DNA of 6,290 nucleotides, taken from assembly GCA_018903055.1 (NCBI GenBank), contig JAHIPW010000148.1, forward strand, positions 1-6,290, in the 5' to 3' direction. Of this stretch, positions 61-5,912 are shown piece after piece. This DNA comes from DRGV01 sp018903055 [NCBI: bacterium]. Its GTDB lineage: Bacteria > UBP18 > UBA7526. A program made the position numbers and the translations under genes. The notes under the pieces were generated by a model. That model was given only the letters and a program-made list of their open reading frames with translations. It was not told the DNA's origin and made no database searches. How positions within the stretch are numbered: the first letter of the stretch is position 1; every line of letters starts with the position of its first letter.

Positions 61-67
61 TCCTTTT
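61..67 (-). promoter_or_regulatory. Ribosome binding site of the zinc-ribbon gene
   Basis: The minus strand reads AAAAGGA seven bases before the ATG at 54. The site falls inside the left end of a dispersed repeat (62 to 102) that has a second copy at 470 to 510, so the translation signal appears to be supplied by the repeat. Confidence 0.55.
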
Positions 68-102
68 CAATTAAGGTCTCTCGGCTCTACGGCCTCGAGA
101 TC
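62..102. repeat. 41-bp dispersed repeat, copy 1
   Basis: This stretch aligns without gaps to 470..510 with five mismatches by eye; the part from 73 is AAGGTCTCTCGGC, then ACGGCCTCGAGATC. It can fold weakly on itself (TCTCGGCC-like arm against GGC-CT-CGAGA). Each copy is followed directly on the right by a long perfect hairpin of unrelated sequence (100 to 126 here, 511 to 533 for copy 2). Confidence 0.7.
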
Positions 103-126
103 ATCCCGACCAAAGGTCGGGATGAT
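100..126. repeat. Perfect 12-bp hairpin with AAA loop
   Basis: The arms ATCATCCCGACC (100 to 111) and GGTCGGGATGAT (115 to 126) are exact reverse complements around an AAA loop. It lies between the tRNA cluster and the zinc-ribbon gene. There is no T-run on either side, so it does not look like an intrinsic terminator, although it could act as a transcript-stabilising or processing hairpin. A smaller GGGC-GCA-GCCC hairpin follows at 127 to 137. Confidence 0.75.
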
Positions 127-224
127 GGGCGCAGCCCCGATAAAAGCAAAGTTAGTATTTTAAAATGGTGGGTGGCATAGGATTTGAACCTATGACCTCT
201 ACGACTTGCCCCGTTAGATCTTTC

Positions 225-301
225 TGGTGGGCAGCACAGGATTTGAACCTGTGACCTCCACGATGTGAGCGTGGCACTCTAACCAACTGAGCTAGCTGCC
301 C
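225..301 (-). tRNA. tRNA-Val (anticodon CAC)
   Basis: The gene reads GGGCAGC, D arm GCTC...GAGT, anticodon stem CCACG/CGTGG around the loop CTCACAT (anticodon CAC at 267..265), variable region AGGTC, T arm ACAGG-TTCAAAT-CCTGT, acceptor GCTGCCC, discriminator A and an encoded CCA. All four stems pair, with one G-T wobble in the D stem, and the 77-nt length is normal. It would decode GUG. It sits inside the second break of the fragmented tRNA-Val-like gene, separated by only five bases on each side from an 11-bp inverted repeat (CCCCGTTAGAT at 209 to 219, ATCTAACGGGG at 307 to 317), so in the precursor RNA it would be carried at the end of an extra helix. Confidence 0.95.
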
Positions 302-307
302 ATACAA

Positions 308-353
308 TCTAACGGGGTGAATGAACGTAGCGCTCTAACTTCACCCCGTTAGA
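308..353. repeat. 14-bp inverted repeat bracketing the middle piece of the broken tRNA
   Basis: TCTAACGGGGTGAA (308 to 321) and TTCACCCCGTTAGA (340 to 353) are exact reverse complements. The 18-base loop between them is precisely the middle piece of the broken tRNA gene. The same TCTAACGGGG core occurs four times in alternating orientation (209 to 218, 308 to 317, 344 to 353, 396 to 405), so several mutually exclusive pairings are possible. Confidence 0.8.
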
Positions 354-405
354 GATAAGACACCAAAGGTGTCTGCCTTGCCTTCGGCAAGGATCTCTAA
401 CGGGG
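344..405. repeat. 62-bp palindromic element with 13-bp inverted ends and two internal hairpins
   Basis: The ends CCCCGTTAGAGAT (344 to 356) and ATCTCTAACGGGG (393 to 405) are perfect inverted repeats. Between them are two perfect 7-bp hairpins: AGACACC-AAA-GGTGTCT (358 to 374) and CCTTGCC-TTC-GGCAAGG (376 to 392). Almost every base is paired, giving a three-way junction. It occupies the D loop of the broken tRNA-Val-like gene and carries no open reading frame, so it resembles a miniature palindromic insertion element. Its family is not recognised. Confidence 0.7.
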
Positions 406-422
406 CAGGCTGAGCTATGCGC

Positions 423-445
423 CCAAATTTCTGAAAGAAATTTGG
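423..445. repeat. 9-bp hairpin abutting the 5' end of the broken tRNA
   Basis: CCAAATTTC (423 to 431) and GAAATTTGG (437 to 445) pair exactly around TGAAA. The arm includes the first two G residues of the broken tRNA (424, 423), so the hairpin would compete with its acceptor stem. An imperfect hairpin built on ACCC-AAA-GGGT follows at about 444 to 471. Confidence 0.6.
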
Positions 446-469
446 ATCCCGAACCCAAAGGGTGAGGGA

Positions 470-510
470 CCTTTTTAACTAAGGTCTCTCGGCCTAACGG
501 CCTCGAGATC
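470..510. repeat. 41-bp dispersed repeat, copy 2
   Basis: This is the counterpart of 62..102, in the same orientation, with five differences. It is followed immediately by the AT-rich hairpin at 511 to 533, just as copy 1 is followed by a GC-rich hairpin. The two copies bracket the tRNA-Val part of the cluster. Confidence 0.7.
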
Positions 511-533
511 AAATTTTGACAAGGTCAAAATTT
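511..533. repeat. Perfect 10-bp hairpin directly after a tRNA CCA end
   Basis: AAATTTTGAC (511 to 520) and GTCAAAATTT (524 to 533) pair around AAG. Its last base is the terminal A of the CCA of the upstream-lying tRNA (533 to 609), so in the transcript the hairpin would start at the mature tRNA 3' end. There is no following T-run on the minus strand that would make it a standard terminator. Confidence 0.65.
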
Positions 534-609
534 GGTGGGCCCTGAAGGATTTGAACCTTCGACCGACGGATTATGAGTCCGTTGCTCTAACCAGCTGAGC
601 TAAGGGCCC
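533..609 (-). tRNA. tRNA with CAT anticodon, probably tRNA-Ile2 (lysidine type)
   Basis: The gene reads GGGCCCT, D stem GCTC/GAGC, anticodon stem ACGGA/TCCGT around CTCATAA (anticodon CAT at 575..573), T arm GAAGG-TTCAAAT-CCTTC, acceptor AGGGCCC, A and an encoded CCA; all stems pair and the length is 77 nt. The GGxCCCTTAGCTCAG opening and the TCGGTCG variable/T-stem region resemble bacterial tRNA-Ile2, whose C34 is converted to lysidine by TilS so that it reads AUA. Elongator tRNA-Met has the same anticodon and cannot be fully excluded; an initiator tRNA is unlikely because positions 1 and 72 form a G-C pair. It is the first tRNA after rpoD on the same strand, about 425 bases downstream of the rpoD stop. 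Confidence 0.93.
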
Positions 610-2952: not shown

Positions 2953-5871
2953 TTAGCCGCGAAAGTATTTCAAAAGTTCCAGATAACGCGTCCTCTTCTC
3001 TTGGTTGATAGCTCCCTTCCTATCCAGAACCTCTTTTATCTCTTTCTCTAATCTCCGATATTCCAACTTTAACTTATTGTCTTTAATGGTCTTTATGAGA
3101 TCATTGAGTGCCCTCTCTTTTCTGGGATATTCTCTCTTCTCCATAAGAAGGGAAGTGACTATCTGGCTTAAACTCTTATCTTTTAACTGGTCCATTATTT
3201 TAGCCGGGGAGAGGGATTTTTCTCTGGTGCTTAAATCGAAGAGCGCCTGGGCAATCCTTCTATACTCTGGGTGGATGAAATCATCCGGGCCGAGTTTCTC
3301 CTGTACTAAAGAAACAAAGCTCTCATCTTGCAGCAGGAGTTGGATGAGGGAGGCCTCTGCTTTGCGGAGAAGGTCTGAAGGTTGGGAGCCTACTTTAAGG
3401 GCCTCTTTTGAAAAAAGACGGCCGCTTTTTATCTTCTTCAATTCCATCCAGAGGATCTCCTCCTCTAAAGAGAGCTCTTGGGAGAGCCGCTTTATCTCTT
3501 CCCTCTGGCGGATGAGATTCCTCTCTTTGGCTATGGTGGGAAGAAGATCCTCCGCTATAGCAATCTTTCCCTCTATGGTCTTAATATCGAACTTACTCTT
3601 AGCCAGCTGAAAACGCCACTCAATTAGAGGAAGCGCCTGGGACAAAAGTTTAGAAAAGGCCTCCCGGCCCTTATCCTGAATGAAGGTATCCGGGTCATAA
3701 CCTTTAGAGAGAGAAATCGCCTTTACCTTTACCCCCTGCTCCAAAAAGAGATCGAGGCTCCTTAGGGTGGCTTGAACCCCAGCAGCATCAGCATCATAGA
3801 GCATGGTAACCTGAGGGGAGAACCTCTTCAGAAGATAGACCTGTCCCGTAGTCAGGGAGGTTCCCATAGAGGCAATAAAATTCTGAAATCCTTCCTGATA
3901 GGGCAGGATGACGTCCATATAGCCTTCAACAACGACCGCCCCCTCCTTAGAGCGAATGGCCTCCTTTGCCCAGTTCAATCCATAGAGTATTCTTCCTTTA
4001 TCATAGATCGGAGTCTGGGGGGAGTTGAGGTACTTCGGTTCCCCTTTCCCCAAGATCCTTCCCCCAAATCCCACTACCCGATCCTGGGTATCGAGGATGG
4101 GGAAGATGATTCGACTCCAAAAGTAAGGCTTTCCCTGAGAGGTTAAAAGACCTCCTTTTATCAATAATTCTCTACTAAAGCCCTTCTCCTTGAGCTGGGA
4201 TAGGAGCTCATCCCAGGAGGAAGGGGCGTAACCCAACCTAAACTTCTCCATGGTCTCTCTCTTGATCCCCCGTTCCCTGAGATACTCAATGGCCCTCTTT
4301 CCTGAAGGGGTATTTACCAGGGATTTAGAGAAGTAGTCAGCAACTATGCTATTTAACCTGTATAACTCCTCCTTTTCCTCAACACGAACCCCCTCTTCCC
4401 TGGTCACCATAGGTAAGGGAATCCCCGCCTTCTTGGCTAATCTTCTTACTGCTTCCGGGAATGAGATATTCTCATACTTCATTAAGAAGTTGAAGACATT
4501 TCCCCCGATTCCACAATTTCCTACCACAAAATTGGGTGTAGTATAGGAGTGATCCTCGGCTACGGTTAGATTGTAAACATTCTCGGCAAATGCTCTTCTT
4601 ACAATTTTTCTAATCGGTAGAATTTGATAAACAAGATCGTTTATCTGCCTGATATCTGAGAAGTGCAATTTAATATTTTCTTGCCATAGGATAGTGTAGG
4701 CAGTCTTATGTCTCACTTTATTTTTATCTATCTTAGCATTTGCTACCCGAACCGTGGGAGAAATCTCCAATCTTAATAGAATATCTTTTAGTTGTTCAGC
4801 TAAAACTGGAGATACGGTAGTGATAGCCTTAAATTCCCTATCCTCTTTACACTTAGCAACCTTACCAGTATATCCGTCGCCTTTAAAAATGGCATCTAAA
4901 ATCATTCTCTGCTTTTTGGGAGGTAAATTCTGAAGTTCAAAGGGGATATGCTTATTCTCTGCCCCTTTCCCACAGAGATTTTCAAAGATATTAGACAGTT
5001 TTGAATTACAAGCGGTTATTTCTAAACCAGTTTTGTTTGCTTTTTTTCGCATATGGAAGGAAGTCTTTATATAGAAAATATCTTTAATAAGTTCTTCTAT
5101 TTCCTGGCCAAATTTTGCTTCATGACTTCCCAGACTGAATCGGATATAGGCTCGATGATTGCTTCCCTCTGCTATCCAGTATCCAATTAATTTTAAAAAT
5201 TTTTCATCAACCTTTATTCTGGTAGGAATAGGTTTTATCTCTGGTCCAAAATTGCTGATTCTGCGATCATAATATCTATCCAAATTTATGAATTTAACAT
5301 CGTTTATCTCTTGATTAATGGGGTAGAGCAGATAATCATTAAGGGAAAGTTGAGAGGCTGGTAATTTCTCTATTTTATACTCTTTGAAAAATTTTGCAGG
5401 ACAGTTTAATTTACATCGCCATTGGCAGATTTTAGTCTTCCGCGATTTATACTGACAATTTTTTGTCTTTATTACAAAGACTTCGTGATCTGTGGTTAAA
5501 GTTACAGGTAGATTTGATTTTCTGGTATATATCTCTACAAGTTCCCCATTATAAGGTCTCCATAAGATCCTTATAACCGGCATAAATCTACCACGATGGG
5601 TAAGAACCAATTCTCCTACCTGGATATCTTCAATCTTGTGAAAACCTTCTTCAGTCCTGATTAAAGCACCTGAAGGGAAGCAGCCAAAACAATGGAAGAT
5701 CTGCTTCTCCGGGCTGACTATAAAGGAGGGAGTCTTCTCGGTATGGAAGGGGCATAATGCCTTGAAGTTTCTTCCCGTCTTCCTCAATACCGCATAGTCC
5801 CCGATGACAGAGACGATATCATTCGCCTCCCGGATTTTATCCAAGAGAGCATCGGAAATTCTGCCATTCAT
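2953..5871 (-). CDS. dnaG: DNA primase DnaG, interrupted by an intein
   Basis: DnaG makes the RNA primers for lagging-strand synthesis. The precursor is 972 residues from the ATG; removing the 389-residue intein (64 to 452) leaves 583, normal for the family. The CHC2 zinc finger has C40, H43 and C61, and its fourth ligand is C453 after splicing, restoring C-x2-H-x17-C-x2-C and the continuation CGIGGNVFNFLMKYE. The polymerase core follows with YLRERGI (about 530), the RIIFPILD-GFGGRILG-PKYLNSP-IYDKG block (587 to 626), and the TOPRIM motifs VVEGYMD (E649), YDADAAG (D693, D695) and KGYDPD. Residues from about 836 form the DnaB-binding domain. ATG at 5871 is preferred to the in-frame TTG at 5883 because GGAG lies six bases before it and the TTG sits in a tandem repeat. 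The gene is 81 bases downstream of the NIF3-like gene and 227 upstream of rpoD. Function presumably depends on splicing. Confidence 0.97.
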   Translation of the reverse strand: MNGRISDALLDKIREANDIVSVIGDYAVLRKTGRNFKALCPFHTEKTPSFIVSPEKQIFHCFGCFPSGALIRTEEGFHKIEDIQVGELVLTHRGRFMPVIRILWRPYNGELVEIYTRKSNLPVTLTTDHEVFVIKTKNCQYKSRKTKICQWRCKLNCPAKFFKEYKIEKLPASQLSLNDYLLYPINQEINDVKFINLDRYYDRRISNFGPEIKPIPTRIKVDEKFLKLIGYWIAEGSNHRAYIRFSLGSHEAKFGQEIEELIKDIFYIKTSFHMRKKANKTGLEITACNSKLSNIFENLCGKGAENKHIPFELQNLPPKKQRMILDAIFKGDGYTGKVAKCKEDREFKAITTVSPVLAEQLKDILLRLEISPTVRVANAKIDKNKVRHKTAYTILWQENIKLHFSDIRQINDLVYQILPIRKIVRRAFAENVYNLTVAEDHSYTTPNFVVGNCGIGGNVFNFLMKYENISFPEAVRRLAKKAGIPLPMVTREEGVRVEEKEELYRLNSIVADYFSKSLVNTPSGKRAIEYLRERGIKRETMEKFRLGYAPSSWDELLSQLKEKGFSRELLIKGGLLTSQGKPYFWSRIIFPILDTQDRVVGFGGRILGKGEPKYLNSPQTPIYDKGRILYGLNWAKEAIRSKEGAVVVEGYMDVILPYQEGFQNFIASMGTSLTTGQVYLLKRFSPQVTMLYDADAAGVQATLRSLDLFLEQGVKVKAISLSKGYDPDTFIQDKGREAFSKLLSQALPLIEWRFQLAKSKFDIKTIEGKIAIAEDLLPTIAKERNLIRQREEIKRLSQELSLEEEILWMELKKIKSGRLFSKEALKVGSQPSDLLRKAEASLIQLLLQDESFVSLVQEKLGPDDFIHPEYRRIAQALFDLSTREKSLSPAKIMDQLKDKSLSQIVTSLLMEKREYPRKERALNDLIKTIKDNKLKLEYRRLEKEIKEVLDRKGAINQEKRTRYLELLKYFRG
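4516..5682 (-). mobile_element. Intein in DnaG with LAGLIDADG homing-endonuclease domain (389 aa)
   Basis: The insert starts at Cys64 of the ATG-numbered precursor (CFPSGALIRTEEG, splicing block A) and ends at Asn452, before Cys453. Block B is TTDH (T126, H129). Block F is VYNLTVAEDHSY (H441). Block G is FVVGN followed by C, so the penultimate residue is Gly instead of the usual His. Two LAGLIDADG-type motifs, LIGYWIAEGS (acidic E235) and LDAIFKGDGYTG (D332), keep their acidic residues, so the endonuclease may be active. A Cys cluster, C139-x9-C149-x3-C153-x3-C157, follows block B. The DNA is distinctly AT-rich: about a quarter G+C at 5041 to 5100 against more than half at 4021 to 4080 in the flanking primase, consistent with horizontal origin. 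It sits before the last zinc ligand of the primase zinc finger. Confidence 0.95.
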
Positions 5872-5877
5872 TTCAAT

Positions 5878-5881
5878 CTCC
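5878..5881 (-). promoter_or_regulatory. Shine-Dalgarno of dnaG
   Basis: GGAG lies six bases before the ATG at 5871, and this decides the start in favour of that ATG over the upstream TTG. Its first G is the last base of the heptamer repeat tract. Confidence 0.65.
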
Positions 5882-5912
5882 AAGCCTCAAGCCTCAAGCC
5901 TCAAGCCTCAAG
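5881..5912. repeat. Heptanucleotide tandem repeat (CAAGCCT, about 4.6 copies)
   Basis: Four exact copies of CAAGCCT followed by CAAG; the transcribed strand reads AGGCTTG repeated. It lies directly upstream of the dnaG Shine-Dalgarno. To its right, 5913 to 5952 holds looser relatives of the same word (CCTGAAGCCTGTGGCCTGTG), and a similar AGCTTGT series occurs at 2828 to 2846. The tract is exact enough to be prone to slippage. Confidence 0.85.

What the first reader, a model, noticed from the sequence alone, without database searches (positions are those of the whole stretch)
166..424. A tRNA-Val-like gene in three pieces with complementary arms at each break and a whole tRNA-Val nested inside
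Seen directly: three pieces (424..406, 339..322, 208..166) reconstitute matching D and anticodon stems and a complete T arm. Each break is bordered by complementary words (CCCCGTTAGA after piece 1, TCTAACGGGG before piece 2, CCCCGTTAGA after piece 2, TCTAACGGGG before piece 3). This is the logic of archaeal split and tri-split tRNA precursors, where complementary leaders and trailers hold the fragments together, but here it is in a bacterial context and in collinear order. The second spacer contains an intact tRNA-Val(CAC). Against function: the acceptor stem has three mismatches and no simple excision gives a seven-base loop with a Val anticodon. A pseudogene opened twice by palindromic elements is therefore the simpler inference.
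Basis: partly seen in the sequence, partly recalled or inferred. Interest (0 to 1): 0.8.

Follow-up and report, generated by a model that had tools for sequence, protein, structure and literature searches.

The report
tRNA genes nested inside tRNA genes
In a little-known group of bacteria, tRNA genes are repeatedly found broken open by small palindromic DNA inserts that contain a complete tRNA gene for the same amino acid, so that the working gene sits like a Russian doll inside the wreck of an older one.

Summary
In detail: on the minus strand a tRNA-Val-like gene lies in three pieces (424-406, 343-318, 208-166), with complementary arms at both breaks and a complete tRNA-Val(CAC) (301-225) in the second gap. 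It is not a split-tRNA precursor. The arms are the ends of a dispersed palindromic element (CCCCGTTAGA 103 times in this 1.09-Mb genome; backward control 1), and the outer gene is a dead tRNA-Val. Nor is it a local accident. In six genomes of one family, 18 of 169 tRNA genes examined lie between the halves of a broken tRNA gene, and all 18 broken genes have the isotype of the tRNA they enclose (11 isotypes; reversed control 0). Host halves often match an intact sister gene at 95-100%. Where the cut can be placed it is in the middle of the anticodon or T loop. One-sided remnants suggest that the host decays while the guest stays. A narrow pattern for such nesting hit 3 of 386 genomes, all in this family. 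Best reading: serial tRNA gene replacement by palindrome-armed tRNA genes inserted into cognate tRNA genes. The enzyme, the unit that moves and most guest sources are unknown. Ten searches of open-access papers showed no earlier description.

The parts
406..424 (-). host tRNA-Val piece 1: 5' acceptor strand and 5' part of the D arm
   Evidence: 15/15 to the intact tRNA-Val(CAC) of G003
344..405 (.). element B: plain palindromic element in the D loop of the host (arms CCCCGTTAGAGAT / ATCTCTAACGGGG, two inner hairpins)
318..343 (-). host tRNA-Val piece 2: 3' part of the D arm and 5' part of the anticodon arm
   Evidence: pairs with pieces 1 and 3 in the fold
209..317 (.). element A: palindromic element in the anticodon loop of the host, arms 317-307 and 219-209, with the guest tRNA inside
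225..301 (-). guest: complete tRNA-Val(CAC), CCA encoded; the only tRNA-Val(CAC) found in G000
166..208 (-). host tRNA-Val piece 3: 3' part of the anticodon arm, T arm, 3' acceptor strand, CCA
   Evidence: 34/39 to the guest, 32/39 to tRNA-Val(CAC) of G005
533..609 (-). tRNA-Met(CAT), intact upstream neighbour that marks the same place in the sister genomes

Best explanation
The three pieces are a dead former tRNA-Val gene (the host). Element B, a plain palindromic element, opened its D loop. Element A, a palindromic element with a complete tRNA-Val(CAC) inside (the guest), opened its anticodon loop, and the guest is now the working gene. The same has happened repeatedly in this bacterial family: a palindrome-armed tRNA gene comes to lie in the middle of the anticodon or T loop, sometimes the D loop, of a tRNA gene of the same isotype. 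Shown by sequence: the arms are dispersed elements, guest and host isotypes agree, hosts match intact sister genes, guests are intact, and in some loci only one host half is left. Inferred: guest and arms arrive together by insertion; the insertion kills the host gene, so only guests that replace its function are kept; the guest is transcribed with the host and freed by RNase P and 3' processing; the host then decays, and the guest can itself be invaded. Not known: the enzyme, and where most guests come from.
For: CCCCGTTAGA 103 times in G000; 29 of 61 element sites with an exact 4-bp target duplication, shuffles mean 3.8, maximum 10. 18 of 169 tRNAs two-sidedly nested, isotypes agree in 18 of 18, reversed control 0, label permutation mean 1.35, maximum 7. 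Host halves against intact sister genes: Val 30/30 and 40/41, Lys 53/53 and 19/19, Met 27/28 and 41/41, Gly 34/34 and 35/40, His 49/50 and 12/12, Leu(TAG) 57/58, Cys 32/35 and 40/40. Cut after the fourth of seven loop nucleotides in eight cases, after the third or fourth in Cys. One-sided remnants. Guest Cys 74/75 to tRNA-Cys of G006, which is related only at domain level and shares the elements. Pattern of nesting in 3 of 386 genomes, all in this family.
Against: No element outside a tRNA gene was seen with a tRNA or a tRNA remnant: of 57 elements examined, 7 hold a complete tRNA and 50 score at most 12; a freely moving cassette should leave some. The Lys guest is identical to its host, as copying in place would give. 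Glu host and guest types are swapped between G001 and G005 with matching arms. Six of the 18 nested tRNAs have arms shorter than 8 bp. No dedicated enzyme: no Y1 transposase, one or two Xer-size recombinases per genome. Guests did not match other phyla clearly better than native genes did. No expression data.
Confidence: 0.66

Rival explanations
1. Same nesting, different origin. A plain palindromic element inserts into the tRNA gene first, tolerated for a while because other chromosome copies are intact, and a tRNA gene of the same isotype is then copied into the palindrome in place by recombination or repair. tRNA cassettes do not travel.
For: The Lys guest is identical to its host and to the sister genes; the Glu types are swapped within matching arms; no tRNA or remnant in the 50 other elements examined; plain elements do sit in tRNA loops (element B here, Leu and Arg T loops).
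Against: Most guests differ strongly from their host and from the sister genes, and guest Cys is nearly identical to a gene of a distant genome; the insert would have to survive in an essential gene until the copy arrives.
Confidence: 0.26
2. Split tRNA: the three pieces are a functional tRNA-Val joined at RNA level, with the arms holding the pieces together.
For: Arms and host stems can form together in one RNA; the G001 host keeps its acceptor and T stems.
Against: Arms are a genome-wide repeat; three acceptor mismatches here; no junction restores a Val anticodon loop; one host half is missing in other loci; each guest is a complete tRNA.
Confidence: 0.04
3. Local accident: a pseudogene opened by two unrelated repeats next to a tRNA-Val that happens to lie between them.
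For: Fits the window taken alone.
Against: 18 of 169 tRNAs with agreement of isotype in 18 of 18.
Confidence: 0.02
4. Assembly artefact.
For: The genomes are fragmented metagenome assemblies rich in repeats.
Against: The same nestings recur in separately assembled genomes, e.g. Leu(TAG) in G000 and G003, Arg(TCG) in G003-G005, Gly in G003 and G004, and record titles name different projects.
Confidence: 0.02

Closest known systems
Genomic islands integrated in tRNA genes (tDNA islands; Islander, PMC4383910: abstract and passages seen)
   Same: An insertion splits a tRNA gene and the inserted DNA supplies the restored gene; crossovers fall in the anticodon loop, the T loop or the T/acceptor junction.
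   Different: Here the insert is about 100-210 bp, encodes no integrase, restores the function with a whole internal tRNA gene of usually different sequence instead of a fragment at one end, and leaves both host halves outside.
Miniature inverted-repeat elements (MITEs) and other bacterial palindromic repeats (recalled)
   Same: Short dispersed inverted-repeat elements without genes, half of the sites with an exact 4-bp target duplication.
   Different: A subset encloses a complete tRNA gene and was seen only inside broken tRNA genes of the same isotype.
Archaeal split, tri-split and intron-bearing tRNA genes (PMC3293823 abstract seen; PMC3218864 listing only)
   Same: tRNA genes in pieces with complementary sequences at the breaks; disruption by a mobile element has been proposed there.
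   Different: Here the host is dead in the window, the pieces are collinear, and a second complete tRNA gene lies in the gap.

Membership tests
tDNA-integrated genomic island | Splits a tRNA gene | tested here: met
   18 of 169 tRNAs lie between two halves
tDNA-integrated genomic island | Insert restores the gene with a tRNA fragment at its end (attP) | tested here: not met
   a whole internal tRNA gene, usually different from the host, and both host halves outside
tDNA-integrated genomic island | Island encodes an integrase | tested here: not met
   inserts of about 100-210 bp; one or two Xer-size recombinases per genome, not in these loci
MITE | Short dispersed element with terminal inverted repeats and no genes | tested here: met
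   (for the plain elements)
MITE | Target site duplication | tested here: inconclusive
   29 of 61 sites exact 4 bp; 19 of 61 with asymmetric edges, both window elements among them
MITE | Related autonomous transposon | not tested
   only Y1 transposases and tyrosine recombinases were searched
Split / tri-split tRNA | Pieces together form a complete tRNA | tested here: not met
   three acceptor mismatches and no proper anticodon loop in the window
Split / tri-split tRNA | Complementary arms specific to the pieces | tested here: not met
   the arms are a genome-wide repeat
Split / tri-split tRNA | Joined mature RNA | not testable with these tools
   needs tRNA sequencing

The most novel reading that the evidence does not exclude
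A class of mobile tRNA genes: palindrome-armed cassettes that home to the middle of the anticodon or T loop of tRNA genes, persist only by replacing the gene they break, and have serially rebuilt the tRNA set of this bacterial lineage, up to three tRNA genes deep (tRNA-Thr of G004), in part with guests from other phyla.
Probability: 0.42. Interest if true: 0.92.

Novelty: categorically new. Interest (0 to 1): 0.82.

Why it matters
tRNA genes are among the most conserved genes. Here tRNA genes found once per anticodon appear to be replaced, isotype by isotype, by nested intruders, and the stages can be laid side by side in sister genomes: intact gene, nested gene, half remnant. That makes the origin of disrupted tRNA genes and the exchange of tRNA genes between lineages testable, and it suggests a very small mobile element whose cargo cures the damage it does.

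Tried and rejected
Hairpin-loop targeting in general: the flanks of 62 element sites show no more complementarity than shuffled pairs (mean stem 2.92 against 3.11), so the mid-loop position in tRNA genes is not explained that way. A preference for TT[CT][AG] just 5' of the cut would fit both kinds of site; I did not test it formally.

IS200/IS605-type transposition: suggested by the TTCA | CAAG edges, but no Y1 transposase was found in G000-G005.

Viral carriers: CCCCGCACC close before a tRNA D-arm motif in 47 viral contigs (48 matches); none has the right arm within 140 bases. One pattern only.

Foreign origin of guests in general: seven guests against 290 genomes gave best matches outside the family of about 85-95%, some over part of the gene; seven native genes gave about 86-92%. 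Both tables were cut and few candidates per genome were scored. Inconclusive; the Cys guest (74/75 to G006) is the exception.

Nesting in G006 and G025, which share the elements: none two-sided in the tRNAs examined (8 and 9; 8 and 15, with some repeats).

Limits of the count: the 169 tRNAs are all 31 over the cut-off in G000 and 138 of the 175 matches counted for G001-G005, whose table was cut. Four of the 169 were left out of the arm test for short flanks. One-sided hits of another isotype (Arg-TCG in G000, His and Tyr in G004, Gly-GCC and Leu-TAA in G005) are fragments belonging to a neighbouring nested gene within 250 bases. Cases judged by eye (Leu-CAG and Leu-TAG in G000, Leu-TAG in G003, Arg-CCT and Arg-CCG in G005, Val-CAC in G002) are not in the 18.

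Literature: ten searches of open-access papers, eight of them on nested, disrupted or element-broken tRNA genes; one search listed 12 of 416 papers. None of the listed papers was seen to describe this. A report under other words, or in a subscription journal, may exist.

The statement that earlier drafts called these seafloor bacteria was dropped: it rested on isolate names only.

Full report
WHAT IS IN THE WINDOW. The window is contig C142 of a 1.09-Mb, 191-contig genome, G000. On the minus strand it holds dnaG, rpoD, tRNA-Met(CAT) and then the locus in question. The host tRNA-Val is in three pieces, 424-406, 343-318 and 208-166. Between pieces 1 and 2 lies element B (405-344); between pieces 2 and 3 lies element A (317-209), which encloses a complete tRNA-Val(CAC) at 301-225.

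THE ARMS ARE A DISPERSED ELEMENT. CCCCGTTAGA occurs 50 times forward and 53 times reverse in G000, against 1 and 0 for the pattern read backwards. It is also frequent in the related genomes G001-G005, and in G006 and G025, which are related only at domain level. One search lists 43 pairings of 29 to 177 bp (four of them in G001; two are overlapping alternatives), with very different interiors. Among 61 distinct sites with exact 10-nt arms beginning CCCCG in the loci fetched by then, 29 have an exact 4-bp target duplication (shuffled flanks: mean 3.8, maximum 10) and 19 have an asymmetric edge of the type [CT]TNA | C[AG][AG]G (shuffled: mean 9.8, maximum 18); 13 fit neither. Both elements of the window are of the second type. 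So the complementary words at the breaks belong to a mobile-looking repeat, not to tRNA maturation.

THE NESTING RECURS. In the sister genome G001 the same place, after rpoD and tRNA-Met, holds a tRNA-Val(CAC) inside the anticodon loop of a broken tRNA-Val, with different arms (CCCCGCACCAAAT) that are again complementary. G002 keeps what looks like the left part of such an arrangement. G003 and G005 have one intact tRNA-Val(CAC) there. The broken gene of G001 matches the intact gene of G003 at 30/30 and 40/41 positions. In G000 itself I then read further cases: Met in Met, Lys in Lys, Ser in Ser, Leu in Leu.

THE COUNT. I collected 169 tRNA genes of G000-G005 (all 31 over the cut-off in G000; 138 of the 175 matches counted for the other five, whose table was cut) and 17 of G006 and G025. 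The 250 nt on either side of each, with intact tRNAs masked, were aligned to all tRNAs; reversed flanks never scored above 13. With a threshold of 12 on both sides, 18 of 169 tRNAs lie between a 5' and a 3' tRNA fragment, and in all 18 both fragments have the isotype of the enclosed tRNA (Lys, Met, Ser, Val, Glu, Thr, Arg, His, Pro, Gly, Cys). The reversed control gives 0; a threshold of 13.5 still gives 13 of 13; permuting isotype labels gives a mean of 1.35 and a maximum of 7. Twelve of the 18 have arms of 8 bp or more within 60 nt, against 16 of 147 others (p = 5e-7, four tRNAs left out for short flanks); some of those 16 are nested by eye. So six of the 18 lack long arms, by erosion or otherwise. 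One-sided remnants occur for Pro (G000), Thr(GGT) (G001), Glu(CTC) and Cys (G002), Gly(TCC) and Thr(TGT) (G003), and Gly(CCC), Thr(TGT) and Asn (G004). In G004 a tRNA-Thr lies inside a tRNA-Thr that itself lies, between further arms, before a third tRNA-Thr 3' half that is 33/33 identical to the intact gene of G003; the 5' half of this outermost one is too eroded to be sure of.

HOSTS ARE FORMER NATIVE GENES. Host halves match intact genes of sisters: Lys 53/53 and 19/19, Met 27/28 and 41/41, Gly 34/34 and 35/40, His 49/50 and 12/12, Leu(TAG) 57/58, Cys 32/35 and 40/40, Arg(CCG) 18/21 and 40/41. Guests mostly differ from their hosts; the Lys guest is identical to its host. For Glu two types occur: G005 has the one type inside the other and G001 the reverse, with matching arms; a single one-way insertion does not explain this. 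The window's host 3' piece is closest to its own guest (34/39), which may mean gene conversion.

WHERE THE CUT IS. Where a related intact gene allows the cut to be placed, the 3' half resumes at the fifth of the seven loop nucleotides: anticodon loop of Val (G001), Met, Glu (G005), Gly and Thr, T loop of Lys, Leu(TAG) and Arg(TCG). For Cys the cut is after the third or fourth. Met and Cys were read by eye; the script did not test Met and stopped inside the guest for Cys. The T-loop inserts of Leu and Arg are plain elements in hosts that already held a guest. Other inserts lie in the D loop (element B here, Leu, Gly(CCC), Thr) or have eroded edges (Ser, His, Val(TAC), Arg). Plain elements in the dead hosts Glu (G005) and Arg (G004, G005) lie at the D stem rather than in a loop. 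Edges often carry four extra nucleotides (TTCA, CAAG, CAGG, CCCG, TGAA).

SOURCE AND SPREAD. Contigs of equal length and content in a named collection are titled HyVt-354 (G001), UBP18_UBA7526 (G002), CSMAG_2709 (G003) and CSMAG_2684 (G005); the taxonomy places UBP18_UBA7526 among unclassified bacterial candidate phyla. A pattern for two D arms too close together to be tandem tRNAs hits 3 of 386 genomes, G000, G001 and G004, all in this family (four hits). The 380 genomes outside the family give 0 hits, and 4 hits of the backward control. The pattern is narrow and misses most nested cases, the window's included. Guests lack an encoded CCA in 9 of 18 cases, against 23 of 151 other tRNAs (p = 0.0015). 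The Cys guest is 74/75 identical to tRNA-Cys of G006 and 58/70 to the un-nested gene of the sister G004. For seven other guests the comparison with native genes was not decisive.

HOW IT PROBABLY WORKS. Shown: dispersed arms, cognate nesting, former native hosts, intact guests, loci with only one host half. Inferred: the guest is transcribed with the host and cut out by RNase P and 3' processing (the usual bacterial route, recalled, not tested). The fold shows that host D, anticodon and T stems, arm stem and guest can coexist in one RNA; that shows the arm stem and most of the guest, but the host D arm not in its usual form. The cognate rule may come from selection: an insert that breaks a single-copy tRNA gene should be lethal unless it replaces it. 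Against selection alone: of 57 elements examined, 7 hold a complete tRNA (scores 73-83) and the other 50 nothing tRNA-like (at most 12, control level), so stray tRNA-bearing elements are missing (the loci of the relatives were chosen around tRNAs). Copying of the guest in place is therefore a serious rival. The enzyme is unknown: no Y1 transposase, one or two Xer-size recombinases per genome; other transposases were not searched.

COMPARISON. It works like a genomic island in a tRNA gene, which splits the gene and restores it, with crossovers in the anticodon loop, the T loop or the T/acceptor junction (PMC4383910, abstract and passages), but it carries no integrase and restores by a whole internal gene. 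The plain elements are like MITEs. Disruption of an archaeal tRNA gene by a mobile element has been proposed (PMC3293823, abstract). Ten searches showed no report of tRNA genes nested in cognate tRNA genes.

Noticed in passing
window 2953-5883 (-): DnaG primase (976 aa) with an intein in its CHC2 zinc-binding region: Hint at residues 68-131, LAGLIDADG-like domain at 325-395.
   Followed up: partly
window 62-103 and 470-511: Another dispersed-looking repeat (42 nt, 88% identical copies, AAGGTCTCTCGGC...CTCGAGATC) on both sides of the tRNA-Val locus; a similar stretch precedes tRNA genes in G005 and elsewhere in G000.
   Followed up: no
spacer between tRNA-Met and tRNA-Val: window 425-532, L093, L094, L101: The spacer of G000 resembles that of G005, and that of its congener G001 resembles that of G003: a mosaic across genera that suggests recombination at this locus.
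   Followed up: no
L003 (G000:C186), about 420-500 and 1320-1400: A tyrosine-recombinase fragment (PF00589, below the cut-off) and, by eye, an attC-like palindrome ending in GTTAGGC between tRNA-Pro, tRNA-Arg and tRNA-His: perhaps an integron remnant.
   Followed up: no
L276 (G006), upstream of 344-416 (-): A broken tRNA-Asn with TCCCGA...TCGGGA palindromes in its D and anticodon regions, next to an intact tRNA-Asn: plain elements break tRNA genes outside this family too.
   Followed up: partly
L103 (G001) and L182 (G005): tRNA-Glu(TTC): host and guest types are swapped between the two genomes while the arms match.
   Followed up: partly
L271 (G025), upstream of 482-557 (-): A partial tandem copy of tRNA-Pro(TGG) with long repeated flanks precedes the intact gene.
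   Followed up: no
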